Positions 42,581-60,815 of a stretch of DNA of 64,000 nucleotides are shown here, in pieces. A model generated the notes under the pieces. It was not told the origin of the DNA. It made no database searches and saw only the letters and a list, made by a program, of their open reading frames with translations. The stretch's first letter is position 1, and every line of letters starts with the position of its first letter. Source of the DNA: Hydrocarboniclastica marina. Lineage in GTDB: Bacteria > Pseudomonadota > Gammaproteobacteria > Pseudomonadales > Oleiphilaceae. The position numbers and the translations under genes are program-made. The stretch spans positions 3,038,692 to 3,102,691 of the forward strand of contig NZ_CP031093.1 of the NCBI RefSeq assembly GCF_004851605.1, read 5' to 3'.

Positions 42581-42943
42581 GGGGACGACATGGCTTCGAC
42601 GCCGGTAGTGAACCCTGCGGTGCATGCCGAGATGGCAGCTAATCTCGTAAATAAAAGCTGCAACGTTATAGTCGCAAACGACGATAACTACGCACTGGCA
42701 GCGTAAGCTGCCGGTTGTCCTGACTCGGATGCTTGTAACCGAGAAGTAACACCTCAGGACATCATAGCTAACAAGCTCGCCTCCGCTCATCGTTCCATGA
42801 ATCGGAGGTTAAAACCCAGGAACTCGCTTCAGGCACCCTGGCCTTCGGGTCGCCTGAAGTTAAAACAATAGAAGGACACTAAGCATGTAGAGCCAAAGGC
42901 AGAACACTGGCGGACGCGGGTTCAATTCCCGCCGTCTCCACCA
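42581..42943 (+). ncRNA. ssrA: Transfer-messenger RNA (tmRNA)
   Basis: Rescues ribosomes stalled on broken messages. GGGGACGACATGGCTTCGACG at the 5' end pairs with CGTCTCC at the 3' end to form the tRNA-like acceptor stem. The T arm GGGTTCAATTCCCGCC and an encoded CCA (42941-42943) complete the alanine-tRNA-like part. The total of 363 nt is normal for one-piece tmRNA. SmpB is encoded 2 kb upstream. A terminator follows. Confidence 0.97.
42674..42706 (+). other. tmRNA tag reading frame
   Basis: GCA resume codon to TAA, encoding ANDDNYALAA, the proteolysis tag added to stalled proteins. The LAA end is recognised by ClpXP-type proteases. This tag form is shared with Pseudomonas. Confidence 0.95.
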
Positions 42944-56079: not shown

Positions 56080-56529
56080 TTACGCCTTCAGCACATACCG
56101 CAGAATCTCTACCACCTGGGCAGTCGTACTGGCCCGTGCCTTGGCGCCGGCATTCACCTCCTTCAGGGGGTGAATGATGTTGTCATCGTGGAGGGTGATA
56201 TAGGGCTTGTCCAAAGCCGCACAATAGCCCGCGTCAAAGGCCGCGTTCCACTGCTTATACTCCTGTCCGAACCTTACCACCACCAGATCCGCCTGCTCGA
56301 TCAAAGTCTGCGTACGGATCGCGTTCACCTTGGCTGACTGATGGTCGCGCCAGAATGGCGATTCGCTGCTGACATCGGCGCTTAGCATATCGCCCGCTGC
56401 ATCGCTGGCGGCGTGGTCGGTGATCGGGCTGGTGAAGATAATATCAAGCTGGTGCTCCTGAGCACCCCCGATGATTTCATCGCGCCAGGAGGTATGGATC
56501 TCACCGGATAGGTAGACGTAGAAAGACAA
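56080..56529 (-). CDS. YtoQ-family protein
   Basis: 149-residue cytoplasmic protein. The start FYVYLSGEIHTSWRDEI, the middle FTSPITDHAASDAAGD and SPFWRDHQSAKVNAIRTQTLIEQADLVVVRFGQEYKQWNAAFDAGYCAALDKPYI match the YtoQ family. This shares the fold of nucleoside 2-deoxyribosyltransferases, though its activity is unproven. The start codon is TTG (56529), eight bases after GAGG; no ATG fits the family start. Confidence 0.82.
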   Translation of the reverse strand: MSFYVYLSGEIHTSWRDEIIGGAQEHQLDIIFTSPITDHAASDAAGDMLSADVSSESPFWRDHQSAKVNAIRTQTLIEQADLVVVRFGQEYKQWNAAFDAGYCAALDKPYITLHDDNIIHPLKEVNAGAKARASTTAQVVEILRYVLKA

Positions 56530-56951: not shown

Positions 56952-59144
56952 TTATTTATCGATTACGCAAACAAATTGCCCCACCACTCTGTAACGTAGG
57001 GCTTCATCTTCCGTCAGCTCAAGGGGGAGAAAGCTGTCATCGTAGGAATTGGGCTTAAGCTGAATGCGCGTGTGGTGCCATCCAGATTCGTTTTCCGTTT
57101 TGAAGCTCTCGTAGACTTTGACTGTGTATCGGGAGCCCGAATCAGAGTCGACCTTATCGACGCATTCGACAAGCACAGTCTTGCCGTTTCGGCTACCGCC
57201 GCCATCTTGGCGAAACAGACATAGGGCGCCATTGGGTATAACGCGGTTCATGGATTCACCGATTACGTGACAGGCAAACATTCCTTCCCGCAACCTTACA
57301 CTATCAGGTACCGCGACCCATTTGCTGTGTTCGGCCATCTGTACGTCGCTGAAATTGCCCGCAGCTACCTTGAGGTCGAAAACGGGGACCGCGTTGACAT
57401 AGGGTTCGAGTTCCACAACCTTCGCTTCCTCAGTCTCTGCCCCGTCAGGGAGATGAACAGGAATGTGCTGCTTGAGATATTCGCGCAACGCATCATCGCA
57501 GGCATAGACAAAGGTTCCGCGAATACCTCGCAGCATGATCGTCCTGTAGATGTTGATTATGTACTGCTTCAGTTCCGCCGGGTCCTTGATGCCTTGCCCG
57601 CCGGTGCGGTCGTAATAGCTGCCCTTGTCTATCACAACAGCCCGACTATTCGGGTCGTATCGTATCTCTCTGCCGAATATGATACCGGCATAATTGAGGT
57701 CATAACCCTGAGTGGTATGGATACAACCGACTTCCCTATGCGAGCCCTCCTTGTTGATCCAGTCTGTGCTGGTACTGTTCCAGCGGAGCTGAACGTCACC
57801 GATAACAATGTCATAGGCATCATCATCTTTCTTGGACGCCCATGGCCAGGAATACCCCGCAATAAGGCGGGACAGTCCGACCTGTCGTTCCTTCTCATTG
57901 ATGGTGTTGACCATATCACTGAGTGATTCGAACACCTCAAACTCATAGTTCCTAGCGGTAAAGACGGTATCACCGTCAACGCGGCAATTGAGCAGGTTAT
58001 CCACAAACTCCACGTAAGGCTGTCCTGCTTTGACGCGGAACTGAGACAGAAGCTGGTGGGTTACCGAGGTTTCGGCAGACTTGAGGTAACGAAAAACCTC
58101 ATTATCCGCGTCAGAAGGCTTGATGGATTGGCCCTGGTCATAAAAGAAGATGGCTTTATCGGCCTGGTGGCGCACCCAATCCACTTCACTGCAGGTGTGT
58201 TTGTCCATGCCCAGCGCGGTACAGGTCTTGTCAAAGGCACCAAAGTAGGCGCCCAGGTTCTTTCGCTTGCGTAACCGATGGGACTCATCCACCAGCACGA
58301 TATCGTAGGGCTCGCGCGCGAGCTCAGACGGGCTGATAACCATGTCCGGACTAAGACCCGAGACGTGTCTGAAGGCTTTCTTCAGGGTCGTCCGGAACGA
58401 TGTCATAGGTACGACCAGCGCCATTTTGGGTTTCGGCATCGCTTGCCTGAGCCTCGTCAGTAGCGACTGAATCTCGGCCTCTTCTTCCGAGAACTCTCGC
58501 AGATCAATTTGGTGATCTTCCGAATTGAGCAACTTGAACAAAAAGATCGCCAAAACCGACTTGCCTGTTCCGGCGCCTCCCTCTATGACAATGTTTTTTA
58601 CACCCGGGTTCAGTAGCTCATGCATGACGGTGAGCAGCCCCTGGCGCTGATCGAAGGACAGGGATTTATAAGGGGAATACTTGAAAACATCTGAGTTATC
58701 GAGGTGGTCTAGGGTGCGTAAGGCAACACCGTGGGCGATCAACCGGTTCCATACCTCTCGGAACACCTCATCGTATAGAACGTCCCGTTGGTAATAGTTG
58801 TGATCCGTCAGACCCAGATTACCGTTCAGCAGGGTATATTTGCCATCGGCGGCCATATACTTGATCAGCATCGATTCAACATCCAGCGTGGCGGACTTGT
58901 TGAAATACTCACTGGTGATCAAGTGCACGGCGGTGAGCAGTTGCTTCTCATCGTGCTTCAGGTGTGTGCTCATGCGAGCAAGGGTGGCCGTGGTTTCACC
59001 AATGTATGCGCGCAGCTGTTTTTCGTCACTCAGCACGTATACTAAAGGCCAGTTGCCAACGGCGTATGCGTTGTCGCGTATACCTTCCAGGGCTTTCTGG
59101 CTGAACGGGTAGCTATGCACCTCTACCATTGCCGAATAGCTCAT
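56952..59144 (-). CDS. GIY-YIG nuclease, Schlafen-type helicase, S24 peptidase fusion
   Basis: One 730-residue protein with three domains. Residues ~30-100: GIY-YIG nuclease (LVYVL 34-38, YIGE 47-50, R57, catalytic E90 in DVES). Residues ~160-560: SF1-type DUF2075 (Schlafen group 3) helicase with Walker A GGAGTGKS (189-196), Walker B DIVLVDESH (281-289), the GCIHTTQGYDLNYAG motif (473-487) and IYRTIMLRGIRGT (532-544). Residues ~610-730: LexA/S24-like peptidase with Ser in HVIGESMNRVIPNG (S631) and Lys in YTVKVYES (K676). All catalytic residues are present. It overlaps the MazG-like gene by four bases (ATGA). Likely anti-phage or DNA-damage responsive; that role is inference. Confidence 0.85.
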   Translation of the reverse strand: MSYSAMVEVHSYPFSQKALEGIRDNAYAVGNWPLVYVLSDEKQLRAYIGETTATLARMSTHLKHDEKQLLTAVHLITSEYFNKSATLDVESMLIKYMAADGKYTLLNGNLGLTDHNYYQRDVLYDEVFREVWNRLIAHGVALRTLDHLDNSDVFKYSPYKSLSFDQRQGLLTVMHELLNPGVKNIVIEGGAGTGKSVLAIFLFKLLNSEDHQIDLREFSEEEAEIQSLLTRLRQAMPKPKMALVVPMTSFRTTLKKAFRHVSGLSPDMVISPSELAREPYDIVLVDESHRLRKRKNLGAYFGAFDKTCTALGMDKHTCSEVDWVRHQADKAIFFYDQGQSIKPSDADNEVFRYLKSAETSVTHQLLSQFRVKAGQPYVEFVDNLLNCRVDGDTVFTARNYEFEVFESLSDMVNTINEKERQVGLSRLIAGYSWPWASKKDDDAYDIVIGDVQLRWNSTSTDWINKEGSHREVGCIHTTQGYDLNYAGIIFGREIRYDPNSRAVVIDKGSYYDRTGGQGIKDPAELKQYIINIYRTIMLRGIRGTFVYACDDALREYLKQHIPVHLPDGAETEEAKVVELEPYVNAVPVFDLKVAAGNFSDVQMAEHSKWVAVPDSVRLREGMFACHVIGESMNRVIPNGALCLFRQDGGGSRNGKTVLVECVDKVDSDSGSRYTVKVYESFKTENESGWHHTRIQLKPNSYDDSFLPLELTEDEALRYRVVGQFVCVIDK

Positions 59145-59461
59145 AGTTCGGTGTACTTCTTCGCCGTGCCCTTGGCCTTGCTGACGGGATACCTCTGTTC
59201 GTTTAACTCGATCTTGTCGAGAACAATCTTTTCAACATCTAGATCGTAGCTGTCTGCCAGCAGCAGCGCGTAGGCAATAACGTCTGCCAGCTCCTCCTTT
59301 ACCTTGTCCACATCCGCTTGTTCTGGTGACTTCCAGAGGAATAGTTCCAGCAATTCCGCAGCTTCAATACTGAGGGCCAGCGAAAGGTCCTTTGGATTAT
59401 GGAACTGTTTCCATTCCCTGTCGTCCCGGAACTGACGCAGTCGGGCAATAGCCTTATTCAT
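59141..59461 (-). CDS. MazG-like nucleotide pyrophosphohydrolase
   Basis: All-alpha NTP pyrophosphatase of 106 residues, like RS21-C6/DCTPP1. WKQFHNPKDLSLALSIEAAELLELFLWK (about 17-44) and KVKEELADVIAYALLLAD (about 53-70) supply the acidic EExxE and ExxD metal site, followed by the family end YPVSKAKGTAKKYTEL. Related enzymes clear (d)NTPs such as dCTP analogues. GAGAGG seven bases before the ATG. Its stop overlaps the start of the GIY-YIG/helicase/S24 gene, so the two are made together. Confidence 0.92.
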   Translation of the reverse strand: MNKAIARLRQFRDDREWKQFHNPKDLSLALSIEAAELLELFLWKSPEQADVDKVKEELADVIAYALLLADSYDLDVEKIVLDKIELNEQRYPVSKAKGTAKKYTEL

Positions 59462-59708: not shown

Positions 59709-60815
59709 TCAGCGGTAGGGTTGGAGCTCGTTGCTGTCGCTGGTCATCAGGCGCAGCAGCCGCGGATTGAGGAAGAGCTTTTCATTGCCTGCCGTTTTCT
59801 CCTGCAATACGCCAATCTCGACCAATTGTTTCAAGTAGTTGGAAGCTGTCTGCCGTTTGGCGATGTCTTTTTCTACCAAGTTACTGATGCGGCAATAGGG
59901 CTGCTCAAAAATGGTCTGGACCAATTCGTGGCTGTACATCTTGGGCAGCTCATTCCTGACATAGTCTTCTGTTTGGGTAATCAGCTTTCGCATAGCGGTG
60001 ATTTTCGCGCAGGTCCAGGACGATACCTGTTCCACACCATTGAGCATAAAGATAATCCACTCCTCCCACTCTCCGGTGCGGGTGACCTGAGTCAGCAATC
60101 GATAGTAATCATTTTTGTGCTGAACAATGTAACGGCTCAGGTAAAGAATGGGCAGCGTCACTAGCCGTTGCTCGATCAGGTACAGCACGTTGACTATGCG
60201 ACCGGTGCGGCCATTACCGTCGTGGAACGGATGAATGGCTTCGAACTGGTAATGGCTGATGGCCATTTTGATTAACGGATCTGTGTCATCGTCTGAATGC
60301 AGATAGTTTTCCCAGTTTGTGAGCAGGTTTCGAATCACCTCTTCGCCGCTAGGCGGGGTATAAATGGTCTCACCAGATGCTTGATTGCCGATGATGGTGC
60401 CGGGTACTTTCCGGACGTCCATCTCTACGCCTTTTAGAGTGCCGCATATCTCCACCGCAGCACTGGTGCAAAGTGGCTTTCTCTGCAGCTGCAGGGAGCC
60501 CTCGTACAGTGCGGTACGGTACCGCAGCGCTTCTTTGGTTGCGGGATCGGCTCCTTGATCTTCCTGTGAGTACCGGAAGAGCTTGTCAGTAGTGGTAACG
60601 ATATTTTCGATCTCAGAACTGTCCTTGGCTTCCAGCAGTGGTAGCAGATTAATGAGAAGAGACTGGTTGGGGATCAGTTCTCCAGCCTGTTTCAGTTCAG
60701 CGAGAGCGGCACGGGCTGGTATGCAGGCTTTGAGAATGTTCAGAGTTTCCGTCAACTCTTTAGCAGGCGGAAGCGGTGGTAACTGGTTATAGGGCTGATC
60801 CGATCGCCAGGCCAT
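59709..60815 (-). CDS. Fic-family AMPylase, class II (SoFic-like)
   Basis: Fic enzyme of 368 residues that transfers AMP (or another group) to protein hydroxyls. Catalytic motif HPFHDGNGRTGR at 195-206 (H195). The inhibitory motif SSEIEN at 66-71 (E70) lies N-terminal, which makes it class II, self-inhibited. A C-terminal winged helix (about 300-365, with IFEQPYCRISNLVEKDIAKRQTASNYLKQL) follows. Whole-length text, e.g. ILKACIPARAALAELKQAGEL, resembles Shewanella SoFic closely. The ribosome site is weak (AAAGGA). A 14-bp palindrome lies 21 bases upstream and may be an operator. Confidence 0.93.
   Translation of the reverse strand: MAWRSDQPYNQLPPLPPAKELTETLNILKACIPARAALAELKQAGELIPNQSLLINLLPLLEAKDSSEIENIVTTTDKLFRYSQEDQGADPATKEALRYRTALYEGSLQLQRKPLCTSAAVEICGTLKGVEMDVRKVPGTIIGNQASGETIYTPPSGEEVIRNLLTNWENYLHSDDDTDPLIKMAISHYQFEAIHPFHDGNGRTGRIVNVLYLIEQRLVTLPILYLSRYIVQHKNDYYRLLTQVTRTGEWEEWIIFMLNGVEQVSSWTCAKITAMRKLITQTEDYVRNELPKMYSHELVQTIFEQPYCRISNLVEKDIAKRQTASNYLKQLVEIGVLQEKTAGNEKLFLNPRLLRLMTSDSNELQPYR

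What the first reader, a model, noticed from the sequence alone, without database searches (positions are those of the whole stretch)
56952..59461. Three-domain GIY-YIG / Schlafen-type helicase / LexA-like peptidase coupled to a nucleotide pyrophosphohydrolase
The 730-residue protein unites a nuclease, an SF1-type DUF2075 helicase and an S24 autopeptidase, each with its catalytic residues in place (E90; GGAGTGKS 189-196 and DESH; S631 and K676). It shares a four-base ATGA overlap with a MazG/DCTPP1-like enzyme that could drain nucleotides. DUF2075 is the same helicase family found in Schlafen group 3 immune proteins. The combination suggests a defence switch: damage or phage DNA is sensed by the helicase, S24 self-cleavage (as in LexA with RecA) releases the nuclease, and nucleotide depletion limits replication. 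The domain reading is from sequence; the mechanism is inference.
Basis: partly seen in the sequence, partly recalled or inferred. Interest (0 to 1): 0.82.

Follow-up and report, generated by a model that had tools for sequence, protein, structure and literature searches.

The report
Self-cleaving Schlafen nuclease-helicase with nucleotide hydrolase
A marine bacterium carries a two-gene, probably anti-phage unit whose DNA-cutting helicase ends in a self-cleaving switch like that of the DNA-damage repressor LexA, and the same kind of switch turns up on several unrelated restriction-type enzymes, which suggests a general way to tie bacterial immunity to DNA damage.

Summary
In detail: a 106-aa MazG/dCTP-pyrophosphatase-like gene overlaps by ATGA a 730-aa protein with GIY-YIG, Schlafen-group-3 helicase and S24 (LexA-like) parts, catalytic residues in place. 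The pair is real: in 29 of 29 GIY-type rows (27 distinct places; Gammaproteobacteria, Bacteroidota, others) a MazG gene lies upstream, its frame broken in one. A sister group has a PD-(D/E)XK nuclease instead; MazG stays in 13 of 15, in four with reversed order, so MazG belongs to the helicase, not the peptidase. The S24 part is the more interesting half. It models on RecA-bound CI and LexA; its Ala-Gly bond, Ser and Lys are kept in 47 of 47 rows of its clade. That clade also sits on two kinds of Type I HsdR, a DruE-like helicase and an HNH nuclease, and by profile on a PLD-helicase-DUF3427 protein. Cleavage, trigger, direction and phage defence are inferred, not shown.

The parts
56952..59144 (-). 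730-aa nuclease-helicase-S24 protein
   Evidence: relatives; model
58815..59144 (-). GIY-YIG nuclease domain, about residues 1-110 (Y36, Y47, G49, R57, H61, E90, N107)
   Evidence: invariant residues 23 of 23; model alone pLDDT 86.9; 2lwf and UvrC GIY-YIG domains among the Foldseek rows, weak E-values
57447..58667 (-). SF1 Schlafen-group-3 helicase, about residues 160-566 (P-loop 189-196, DESH 286-289)
   Evidence: PF09848 211.7 bits; UvrD Z 18.4, SLFN11 Z 15.6
56955..57392 (-). S24 / LexA-type domain, residues 585-730
57357..57362 (-). predicted scissile bond Ala595-Gly596
   Evidence: Ala-Gly in 47 of 47 rows of the clade; own LexA has the same VAA-G
57252..57254 (-). catalytic Ser631 codon
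   Evidence: Ser in 59 of 59 rows
57117..57119 (-). catalytic Lys676 codon
   Evidence: Lys in 47 of 47 rows of the clade; Arg in 10 of 10 of the beta subfamily
59141..59461 (-). 106-aa MazG-like nucleotide pyrophosphohydrolase, ExxE...ExxD (E33, E36, E57, D60)
   Evidence: the four residues in 47 of 47 aligned ORFs
59141..59144 (-). four-base ATGA overlap of the two genes
   Evidence: junction; same overlap in 23 of 29 GIY-type rows
59709..60815 (-). SoFic adenylyltransferase gene upstream; shares the low GC of the pair (0.518; six other nearby genes 0.571-0.603), possibly acquired together
   Evidence: families; GC

Best explanation
A candidate anti-phage / anti-mobile-element unit. The 730-aa protein is a nuclease (GIY-YIG) on an SF1 helicase of the Schlafen-group-3 type, which would move on single strands and attack replicating or unprotected foreign DNA; the co-translated MazG-like enzyme hydrolyses a (deoxy)nucleotide, probably dCTP-like, and so starves replication at the same time. 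The C-terminal S24 domain is a LexA/CI-type autopeptidase: when RecA filaments form on ssDNA it cuts between Ala595 and Gly596 and separates nuclease-helicase from S24. I think an off-switch is the likeliest direction: a built-in restriction alleviation that protects the host when its own chromosome is broken. The released 1-595 fragment would end in -VAA, like the LexA fragment that ClpX recognises. Shown: gene pair, domains, conserved active sites, the S24 clade's presence on other DNA-cutting enzymes. Inferred: self-cleavage, RecA as trigger, off direction, degron, the MazG substrate, defence.
For: S24: structure matches to residues 585-730 are led by lambda CI bound to RecA (8gmu Z 15.7, rmsd 2.0, 121 residues), a LexA L89P/Q92W/E152A/K156A mutant (1jhe 15.3) and RecA-bound LexA (8gms 15.2, 8s7g 15.0, 8trg 14.7). 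In 47 of 47 clade rows the Ala-Gly bond, Ser and Lys are kept, Ser-Lys spacing 45. The clade (95/91 support) holds both Schlafen types, HsdR with S24 at the C-end (L120, L121) or N-end (L071, with hsdM and hsdS beside it), a DruE-like helicase (L070) and an HNH_4 protein (L119). In one search, 25 of 25 hits over 150 bits (390 genomes) are on such proteins. P2-P1 is Ala-Ala in 46 of 47; the exception (Ser-Ala) is L071, where the cut-off N-fragment is not the nuclease. LexA cleavage reveals ClpX signals (PMC10584840, passage); HsdR is removed by ClpXP in restriction alleviation (PMC4231737, abstract). Exact LexA box upstream of the operon: 0 of 51 loci, so control would be post-translational. 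MazG pairing. Accessory spread: any match in 31 of 390 genomes of the order, own included; at one site the pair is in 2 of 16 genomes of one genus; low GC.
Against: No experiment. The lean to RecA-bound forms is slight: rows under 1 Z apart are ties, DNA-bound LexA 3jso has 14.2, and the hyper-cleavable CI fragments 2hnf and 2ho0 only 12.8. Conserved Ala-Ala may simply be peptidase preference: own LexA also has VAA-G. In L071 the S24 is N-terminal, and in L024 (S24 of another lineage) the bond is Pro-Cys-Gly, so an -AA degron on the nuclease cannot apply in either. The beta subfamily has Arg at the Lys column in 10 of 10 and may not cleave. For EcoKI itself, a section heading of PMC11109961 says restriction alleviation 'is not a SOS response function' and its abstract reports a RecA-independent route. 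Neighbours of the pair are often ordinary genes; defence-like ones are scattered. Viral-contig scan empty, with only two short patterns. GIY-YIG fold rows have E 0.15 and higher.
Confidence: 0.45

Rival explanations
1. On-switch: S24 holds the nuclease-helicase inactive; RecA filaments raised by phage replication or damage trigger cleavage, which frees the nuclease, and MazG drains nucleotides, giving growth arrest or death of the infected cell.
For: UmuD is a precedent where S24 cleavage activates (recalled). S24 is C-terminal in the GIY-type proteins (28 of 29 rows by the A2 profile; L024 by Pfam), so cutting leaves nuclease and helicase whole. Nucleotide depletion fits an abortive outcome.
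Against: HsdR subunits carrying the same clade should need no activation, as specificity lies in HsdS (recalled; HsdS near L071 and L121). Cleavage leaves a LexA-like -AA end. Any host DNA damage would then set off self-killing.
Confidence: 0.28
2. Structural rather than regulatory: S24 serves as an oligomerisation or RecA/ssDNA-docking module that recruits the nuclease-helicase to RecA-coated phage DNA, cleavage being secondary.
For: LexA and CI C-domains bind RecA filaments (PDB titles). The beta subfamily keeps the S24 match but has Arg for Lys in 10 of 10 rows.
Against: The Ala-Gly bond and the Ser-Lys pair are kept in 47 of 47 rows of the window's own clade, which a pure docking role does not need.
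Confidence: 0.12
3. A host DNA-repair or damage-tolerance enzyme rather than defence: a UvrD-like helicase with a GIY-YIG nuclease that processes stalled forks, tuned by RecA, with MazG cleaning the nucleotide pool.
For: Helicase part is closest to UvrD (Z 18.4); GIY-YIG domains of UvrC are among the structure rows; MazG-type enzymes are house-cleaning enzymes elsewhere (recalled).
Against: Patchy presence (any match in 5 of 58 relatives, own included and one of them only an S24 piece; 31 of 390), exact LexA box in 0 of 51 loci, swap of the nuclease domain, S24 clade shared with restriction-type enzymes, low GC.
Confidence: 0.12

Closest known systems
GIY-YIG fused to DUF2075 / SLFN-g3 helicase (COG3410-type, name recalled; PADLOC candidates PDC-S14 and PDC-S41)
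   Same: Helicase PF09848. Plasmid proteins of Paenibacillus and Limosilactobacillus match residues 15-563 and 9-562 of the window protein (GIY-YIG not tested there), one beside type III-A CRISPR genes. PDC-S14 matches residues 34-110 (29 bits); a Schlafen helicase behind the L022 pair matches PDC-S41 over its whole length.
   Different: Those plasmid proteins end before the S24 part, and no MazG neighbour is annotated in the stretches seen (the plasmid gene tables are incomplete).
LexA / lambda CI / UmuD autopeptidases (S24)
   Same: Fold; Ala-Gly bond and Ser-Lys pair.
   Different: Fused to a nuclease-helicase instead of a DNA-binding repressor part; its own clade, Ser-Lys spacing 45 against 37 in own LexA.
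Restriction alleviation of Type I enzymes (ClpXP on HsdR)
   Same: A proteolytic brake on a nuclease-helicase (PMC4231737 and PMC11109961, abstracts and outlines).
   Different: No self-cleaving domain is mentioned in the parts seen; here the brake would be built into the enzyme. Term searches for S24, self-cleav and autoproteoly in two restriction reviews had no hit (PMC3874165, PMC12707154).
DCTPP1 / MazG nucleotide pyrophosphohydrolases
   Same: The 106-aa protein matches RS21-C6/dCTP pyrophosphatase 1 (E 2e-19); metal residues in 47 of 47 ORFs.
   Different: Overlaps a nuclease-helicase gene; substrate unknown.
Human Schlafen group 3 (SLFN11, SLFN14)
   Same: Helicase domain (Z 15.6 and 15.4).
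   Different: No Schlafen AlbA-type RNase match; a DNA nuclease domain at the N-end instead.

Membership tests
SLFN-g3 helicase (PF09848) | profile match over cut-off | tested here: met
   211.7 bits against 24
SLFN-g3 helicase (PF09848) | Walker A and DE-box | tested here: met
   G189, G190, G192-K195, D286, E287, H289 invariant 23 of 23
GIY-YIG nuclease | catalytic Tyr, Tyr-x-Gly, Arg, Glu and Asn | tested here: met
   Y36, Y47, G49, R57, E90, N107 invariant 23 of 23; which residues are catalytic is recalled
GIY-YIG nuclease | profile match over curated cut-off | tested here: inconclusive
   15.6 against 22.6 for this protein, 25.4 for relative L024
GIY-YIG nuclease | fold | tested here: inconclusive
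   domain model pLDDT 86.9; 2lwf (recalled to be GIY-YIG) is first and UvrC GIY-YIG rows follow from rank 10, TMt 0.51-0.62, E 0.15-1.4, among unrelated rows
S24 / LexA autopeptidase | LexA C-domain fold | tested here: met
   Z 12.4 to 15.7 to CI and LexA chains over 117-125 residues
S24 / LexA autopeptidase | Ser-Lys pair and Ala/Cys-Gly bond | tested here: met
   47 of 47 clade rows, window included
S24 / LexA autopeptidase | RecA-stimulated self-cleavage | not testable with these tools
   needs protein chemistry
MazG-like / DCTPP pyrophosphohydrolase | profile match and ExxE...ExxD | tested here: met
   65.1 bits against 27; residues in 47 of 47 ORFs
MazG-like / DCTPP pyrophosphohydrolase | nucleotide pyrophosphohydrolysis | not testable with these tools
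   needs enzyme assays
known anti-phage system (PADLOC) | full-length match to a defence model | tested here: not met
   only partial matches: AbiO and Nhi to the helicase, PDC-S14 to the N-end
known anti-phage system (PADLOC) | protection against phage | not testable with these tools
   needs phage challenge

The most novel reading that the evidence does not exclude
Bacteria use one mobile LexA-type, RecA-gated self-cleaving module as a common regulator of DNA-cutting immunity: it has been fused to Schlafen nuclease-helicases of two nuclease types, two kinds of Type I HsdR, a DruE-like helicase, an HNH nuclease and a PLD-helicase-DUF3427 enzyme, so that host DNA damage directly switches restriction off by cleavage and ClpXP turnover. 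Two unrelated nucleotide hydrolases are paired with such enzymes: MazG with the Schlafen type, NUDIX beside 2 of 12 PLD-helicase proteins.
Probability: 0.33. Interest if true: 0.88.

Novelty: new variant of a known kind. Interest (0 to 1): 0.72.

Why it matters
How restriction enzymes are kept from destroying a damaged host chromosome is an old question. A 1984 title calls damage-inducible restriction alleviation in E. [quoted passage not shown] Enzymes with a LexA-type self-cleaving domain built in would give a direct RecA-to-nuclease route in other bacteria, and this can be tested with standard protein chemistry. For the Schlafen field it adds a bacterial form in which a DNA nuclease, a group-3 helicase, a nucleotide hydrolase and a likely damage sensor are joined.

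Tried and rejected
SOS transcription of the operon: exact CTGT-N8-ACAG (consensus recalled) within about 330 bp upstream of the first gene in 0 of 51 loci; one mismatch in 3 (L061, L080, L085); one more locus (L056) had too little upstream sequence. A first version (47 loci) measured 4 loci inside the gene instead of upstream and is replaced.

MazG tied to S24: rejected. MazG lies beside Schlafen helicases without S24 in 5 of 9 rows and was not found in 2 of 15 with S24 (L076, L077, near-copies). L164 (MazG 609 bases downstream) is left out because its gene is broken; L060 is held with only 1.5 kb flanks.

Carriage on phages and plasmids: no relative in viral contigs (two short patterns, a weak test); 4 phage records with partial matches, 3 of them faecal 'Bacteriophage sp.' contigs; 39 plasmid records with partial matches, none over 80% of the query.

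Empty site of the window's own locus: not found; YtoQ matched in 18 of 38 genomes (own included); I fetched 7 of these places, and none has the window's other flank genes beside it apart from one distant 33% match in L194. No flanking repeats that mark an element end. Promoter and terminator signals not above shuffles.

PDB sequence search with the N-terminal profile: best is I-TevI (intron-associated endonuclease 1) at E 0.073, not significant.

Rows left out of the counts: duplicates L068, L069; the two L072 pieces; L122 and L164 (broken); L159 and L161 not entered. Seven near-copies were dropped before the tree.
Full report
WHAT IS THERE. Two minus-strand genes, 59141-59461 (106 aa) and 56952-59144 (730 aa), overlap by ATGA. 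The 106-aa product is MazG-like (65.1 bits); its best PDB matches are RS21-C6/dCTP pyrophosphatase 1 (E 2e-19). The 730-aa product has a Schlafen-group-3 helicase (211.7 bits) and two parts that score under Pfam's cut-offs in this one protein, GIY-YIG (15.6) and S24 (20.7). Relative L024 passes both cut-offs, and the key residues of all three domains are invariant in 23 of 23 aligned relatives. The pair and the SoFic gene upstream have 0.505-0.523 GC against 0.571-0.603 for six other genes nearby; 4 of 123 windows of 2.5 kb are as low as the pair.

STRUCTURE. A 23-sequence AlphaFold2 model (pLDDT 78.6) puts residues 160-566 on UvrD (Z 18.4) and human SLFN11 (15.6), and 585-730 on lambda CI in complex with RecA (15.7, rmsd 2.0 over 121 residues), a LexA mutant (1jhe, 15.3; hyper-cleavable by recall) and RecA-bound LexA (15.2). 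Other S24 rows are lower: DNA-bound LexA 14.2 and 12.4, LexA S119A 14.0 and 12.7, nanobody-bound LexA 12.6, and also the hyper-cleavable CI fragments 2hnf and 2ho0 at 12.8. Since rows under 1 apart are ties and the last two go the other way, a preference for cleavage-ready forms is not established. The N-terminal part alone (pLDDT 86.9) finds 2lwf first (a plant glutaredoxin N-domain that I recall to be GIY-YIG) and UvrC GIY-YIG domains from rank 10, among unrelated rows and at E 0.15-1.4. The invariant residues carry that assignment.

THE PAIR ACROSS GENOMES. One search found 18 loci: Marinobacter, Saccharospirillum, Vreelandella, Halomonas, Nitrincola, Alcanivorax, Bacteroidota and one unclassified bacterium; a MazG match lies next to the helicase in 18 of 18. 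With the genome searches I classified 54 rows. GIY type: 29 rows (27 distinct places; L068 and L069 repeat L018 and L017), all with a MazG match upstream on the same strand, 23 of 29 with the 4-base overlap; in L067 the MazG frame is broken. PD-(D/E)XK type with S24: 15 rows, MazG in 13 (9 upstream, 4 downstream). PD-(D/E)XK type without S24: 9 rows, MazG in 5; one further row (L164) is broken by a frameshift. The N-end of the last two groups has no nuclease match in Pfam in the eight scanned, but E69, D80, E98-x-K100 and Q131 are invariant in 15 of 15, a PD-(D/E)XK pattern (motif recalled, fold not tested). So the nuclease is exchanged, gene order is reversed in four, and MazG mostly stays: it is a partner of the helicase. 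The sample leans to S24-bearing forms, because the query carries S24, and it holds near-copies.

THE S24 MODULE. A profile of the C-terminal part (A2) was searched in 390 genomes of the order and 369 of the class; at most 9-10 candidates per genome were scored. In one search, 25 hits exceed 150 bits and 25 of 25 are on nuclease-helicase proteins: 11 GIY-type, 12 PD-(D/E)XK-type, one DruE-like (L070) and one HsdR (L071); the other 9 hits are under 35 bits, six in frames over 780 aa (five of them read as the beta form below, one, in G261, not confirmed) and three in frames of 253-313 aa that I did not examine. In one search nine hits exceed 135 bits: two GIY-type, two PD-(D/E)XK-type, one HNH_4 protein (L119), two HsdR with S24 at the C-end (L120, L121) and two fragments; of the 15 weaker ones four are beta forms and eleven are short frames (under 300 aa) that I did not examine. 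In 78 genomes of a third class there were 2 hits, one of each Schlafen type. Partners were named with Pfam and PADLOC. L071 lies among hsdM and hsdS; L121 has an hsdS two genes away. L120 overlaps by 4 bases a Schlafen AlbA_2-HATPase-Fic_C gene. A PLD-ResIII-DUF3427 protein carries the same module by profile score, split by an IS66-like insertion (name by recall) and so not in the tree, with a NUDIX gene in front (L072). A second, distant S24 form (beta) lies between helicase and DUF3427 in PLD-helicase proteins; one of these, L160, has a NUDIX gene in front. NUDIX was found at 2 of the 12 PLD-type loci scanned. In L079 and L082 such a protein lies next to a MazG-Schlafen pair.

ACTIVE SITES. 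One search aligned 59 S24 domains: 47 of the window's clade (window included), 10 beta, L024, and the genome's own LexA (the only other S24 found in this genome). In the 47: P1 Ala, P1' Gly, Ser and Lys 47 of 47; P2 Ala 46 of 47; Ser-Lys spacing 45 in all. Beta: Cys-Gly, and Arg in place of Lys in 10 of 10, so its cleavage is doubtful. L024: Pro-Cys-Gly. In the tree (52 rows) the clade is one side of a branch at 95/91; HsdR, DruE and one fragment group together (100/98); the HNH protein falls among GIY-type rows (98/79); L024 groups with LexA on long branches, which suggests a separate S24 acquisition, its place being unsure. I infer that the module has moved between enzymes.

HOW IT PROBABLY WORKS. 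Shown: the pair, the domains, conserved active sites, module sharing. Inferred: the helicase tracks ssDNA-containing foreign or replicating DNA and the GIY-YIG domain cuts; MazG removes a nucleotide; RecA filaments trigger the cut at 595/596. Direction is open. For off: HsdR, whose specificity lies in HsdS (recalled), carries the same module and would gain little from an on-switch; HsdR of EcoKI is braked by ClpXP (PMC4231737 and PMC11109961, abstracts); LexA cleavage exposes ClpX signals (PMC10584840, passage); the new end here is -AA in 46 of 47, and the ssrA tag of this genome ends ALAA. The one deviating P2 is in L071, where the N-fragment is not the nuclease; that is one case and proves nothing, and L024 does not fit a degron at all. 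Against the parallel, PMC11109961 reports that EcoKI alleviation is not an SOS function and can run without RecA (abstract and section heading). For on: UmuD as precedent (recalled), and starvation by MazG.

DEFENCE OR REPAIR. Presence is patchy: any match, own genome and S24-only matches included, in 5 of 58 relatives, 31 of 390 of the order, 11 of 398 of the phylum. At one chromosomal site in a sister genus the pair is present in 2 of 16 genomes and the contents differ in the rest; those two were known carriers. Exact LexA box: 0 of 51 loci. Neighbours are mixed: HNH nucleases (L017, L065), an RmrA-like M78 protein (L012), a PDC-S41 Schlafen helicase (L022), and relatives of the window's SoFic in 5 of the 53 loci grouped (window, L024, L064, L072, L083), but also RNase R, transporters, SpoT, chemoreceptor and FAD enzymes. 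PADLOC has no full-length model for the window protein. Defence is therefore likely but unproven.

LITERATURE (held open-access library only). No paper for DUF2075 with GIY-YIG and MazG, DUF2075 with nucleotide pyrophosphohydrolase, four of anti-phage/LexA-like/peptidase S24/helicase/Schlafen, or restriction alleviation with S24 and LexA. Schlafen/GIY-YIG/defence, two of three, gave 154 papers, 20 seen as a listing; two were searched for terms: PMC12839542 has no GIY-YIG, MazG, S24 or LexA, PMC9519451 no DUF2075, S24 or MazG. S24 peptidase/antiphage/restriction/autoproteolysis, three of four, gave six, of which PMC13192584 (Druantia III) was searched: the terms S24 and peptidase do not occur. 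DUF3427 with helicase and defense gave two, both without S24 or LexA. Names of this helicase family gave six, seen as a listing. Two restriction reviews have no S24, self-cleav or autoproteoly, and LexA only in one reference title. The library is partial and bioRxiv is not held as such, so this is not proof of novelty.

Noticed in passing
window 59709-60815 (-): SoFic adenylyltransferase (635.9 bits) directly upstream of the pair, same strand and same low GC; relatives of it by blastp cluster lie near the module in L024, L064, L072 and L083.
   Followed up: partly
L120:4265-5932: Schlafen AlbA_2 - HATPase_c_4 - Fic-like_C gene overlapping by 4 bases an HsdR that ends in the S24 module: a second Schlafen-S24 connection.
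   Followed up: no
L072:7995-14318: PLD-ResIII-DUF3427-S24 gene interrupted by an IS66-like insertion inside the S24 part, with a NUDIX gene in front; L160 has a NUDIX gene in front of a beta-type relative.
   Followed up: partly
L079:9740-13588, L082:4006-7854: 1282-aa protein (L079: methyltransferase-PLD-helicase-S24 beta-DUF3427) next to a PD-(D/E)XK Schlafen-S24 and MazG pair; beta S24 has Arg at the catalytic Lys column in 10 of 10 rows.
   Followed up: partly
L024:8004-10016: GIY-YIG-Schlafen helicase with a LexA-like S24 of a different lineage (71.6 bits, Cys-Gly bond), perhaps a separate acquisition at the same place in the chain.
   Followed up: partly
L022:4113-6074: Second Schlafen helicase right behind the GIY-YIG/MazG pair, a full-length match to PADLOC candidate PDC-S41 (910 bits).
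   Followed up: no
L067:3600-3945: MazG gene of the pair is in two frames (a frameshift or a sequencing error in a draft genome) while the helicase gene is whole.
   Followed up: partly
L164:7173-9643: Halomonas PA16-9 relative split into two frames (686 and 159 aa), a broken copy.
   Followed up: no
window 42581-42943 (+): tmRNA with tag ANDDNYALAA, about 14 kb from the pair.
   Followed up: no
window 56080-56529 (-): YtoQ-family nucleoside 2-deoxyribosyltransferase-like gene just downstream of the pair, another nucleotide enzyme, but with normal GC.
   Followed up: partly
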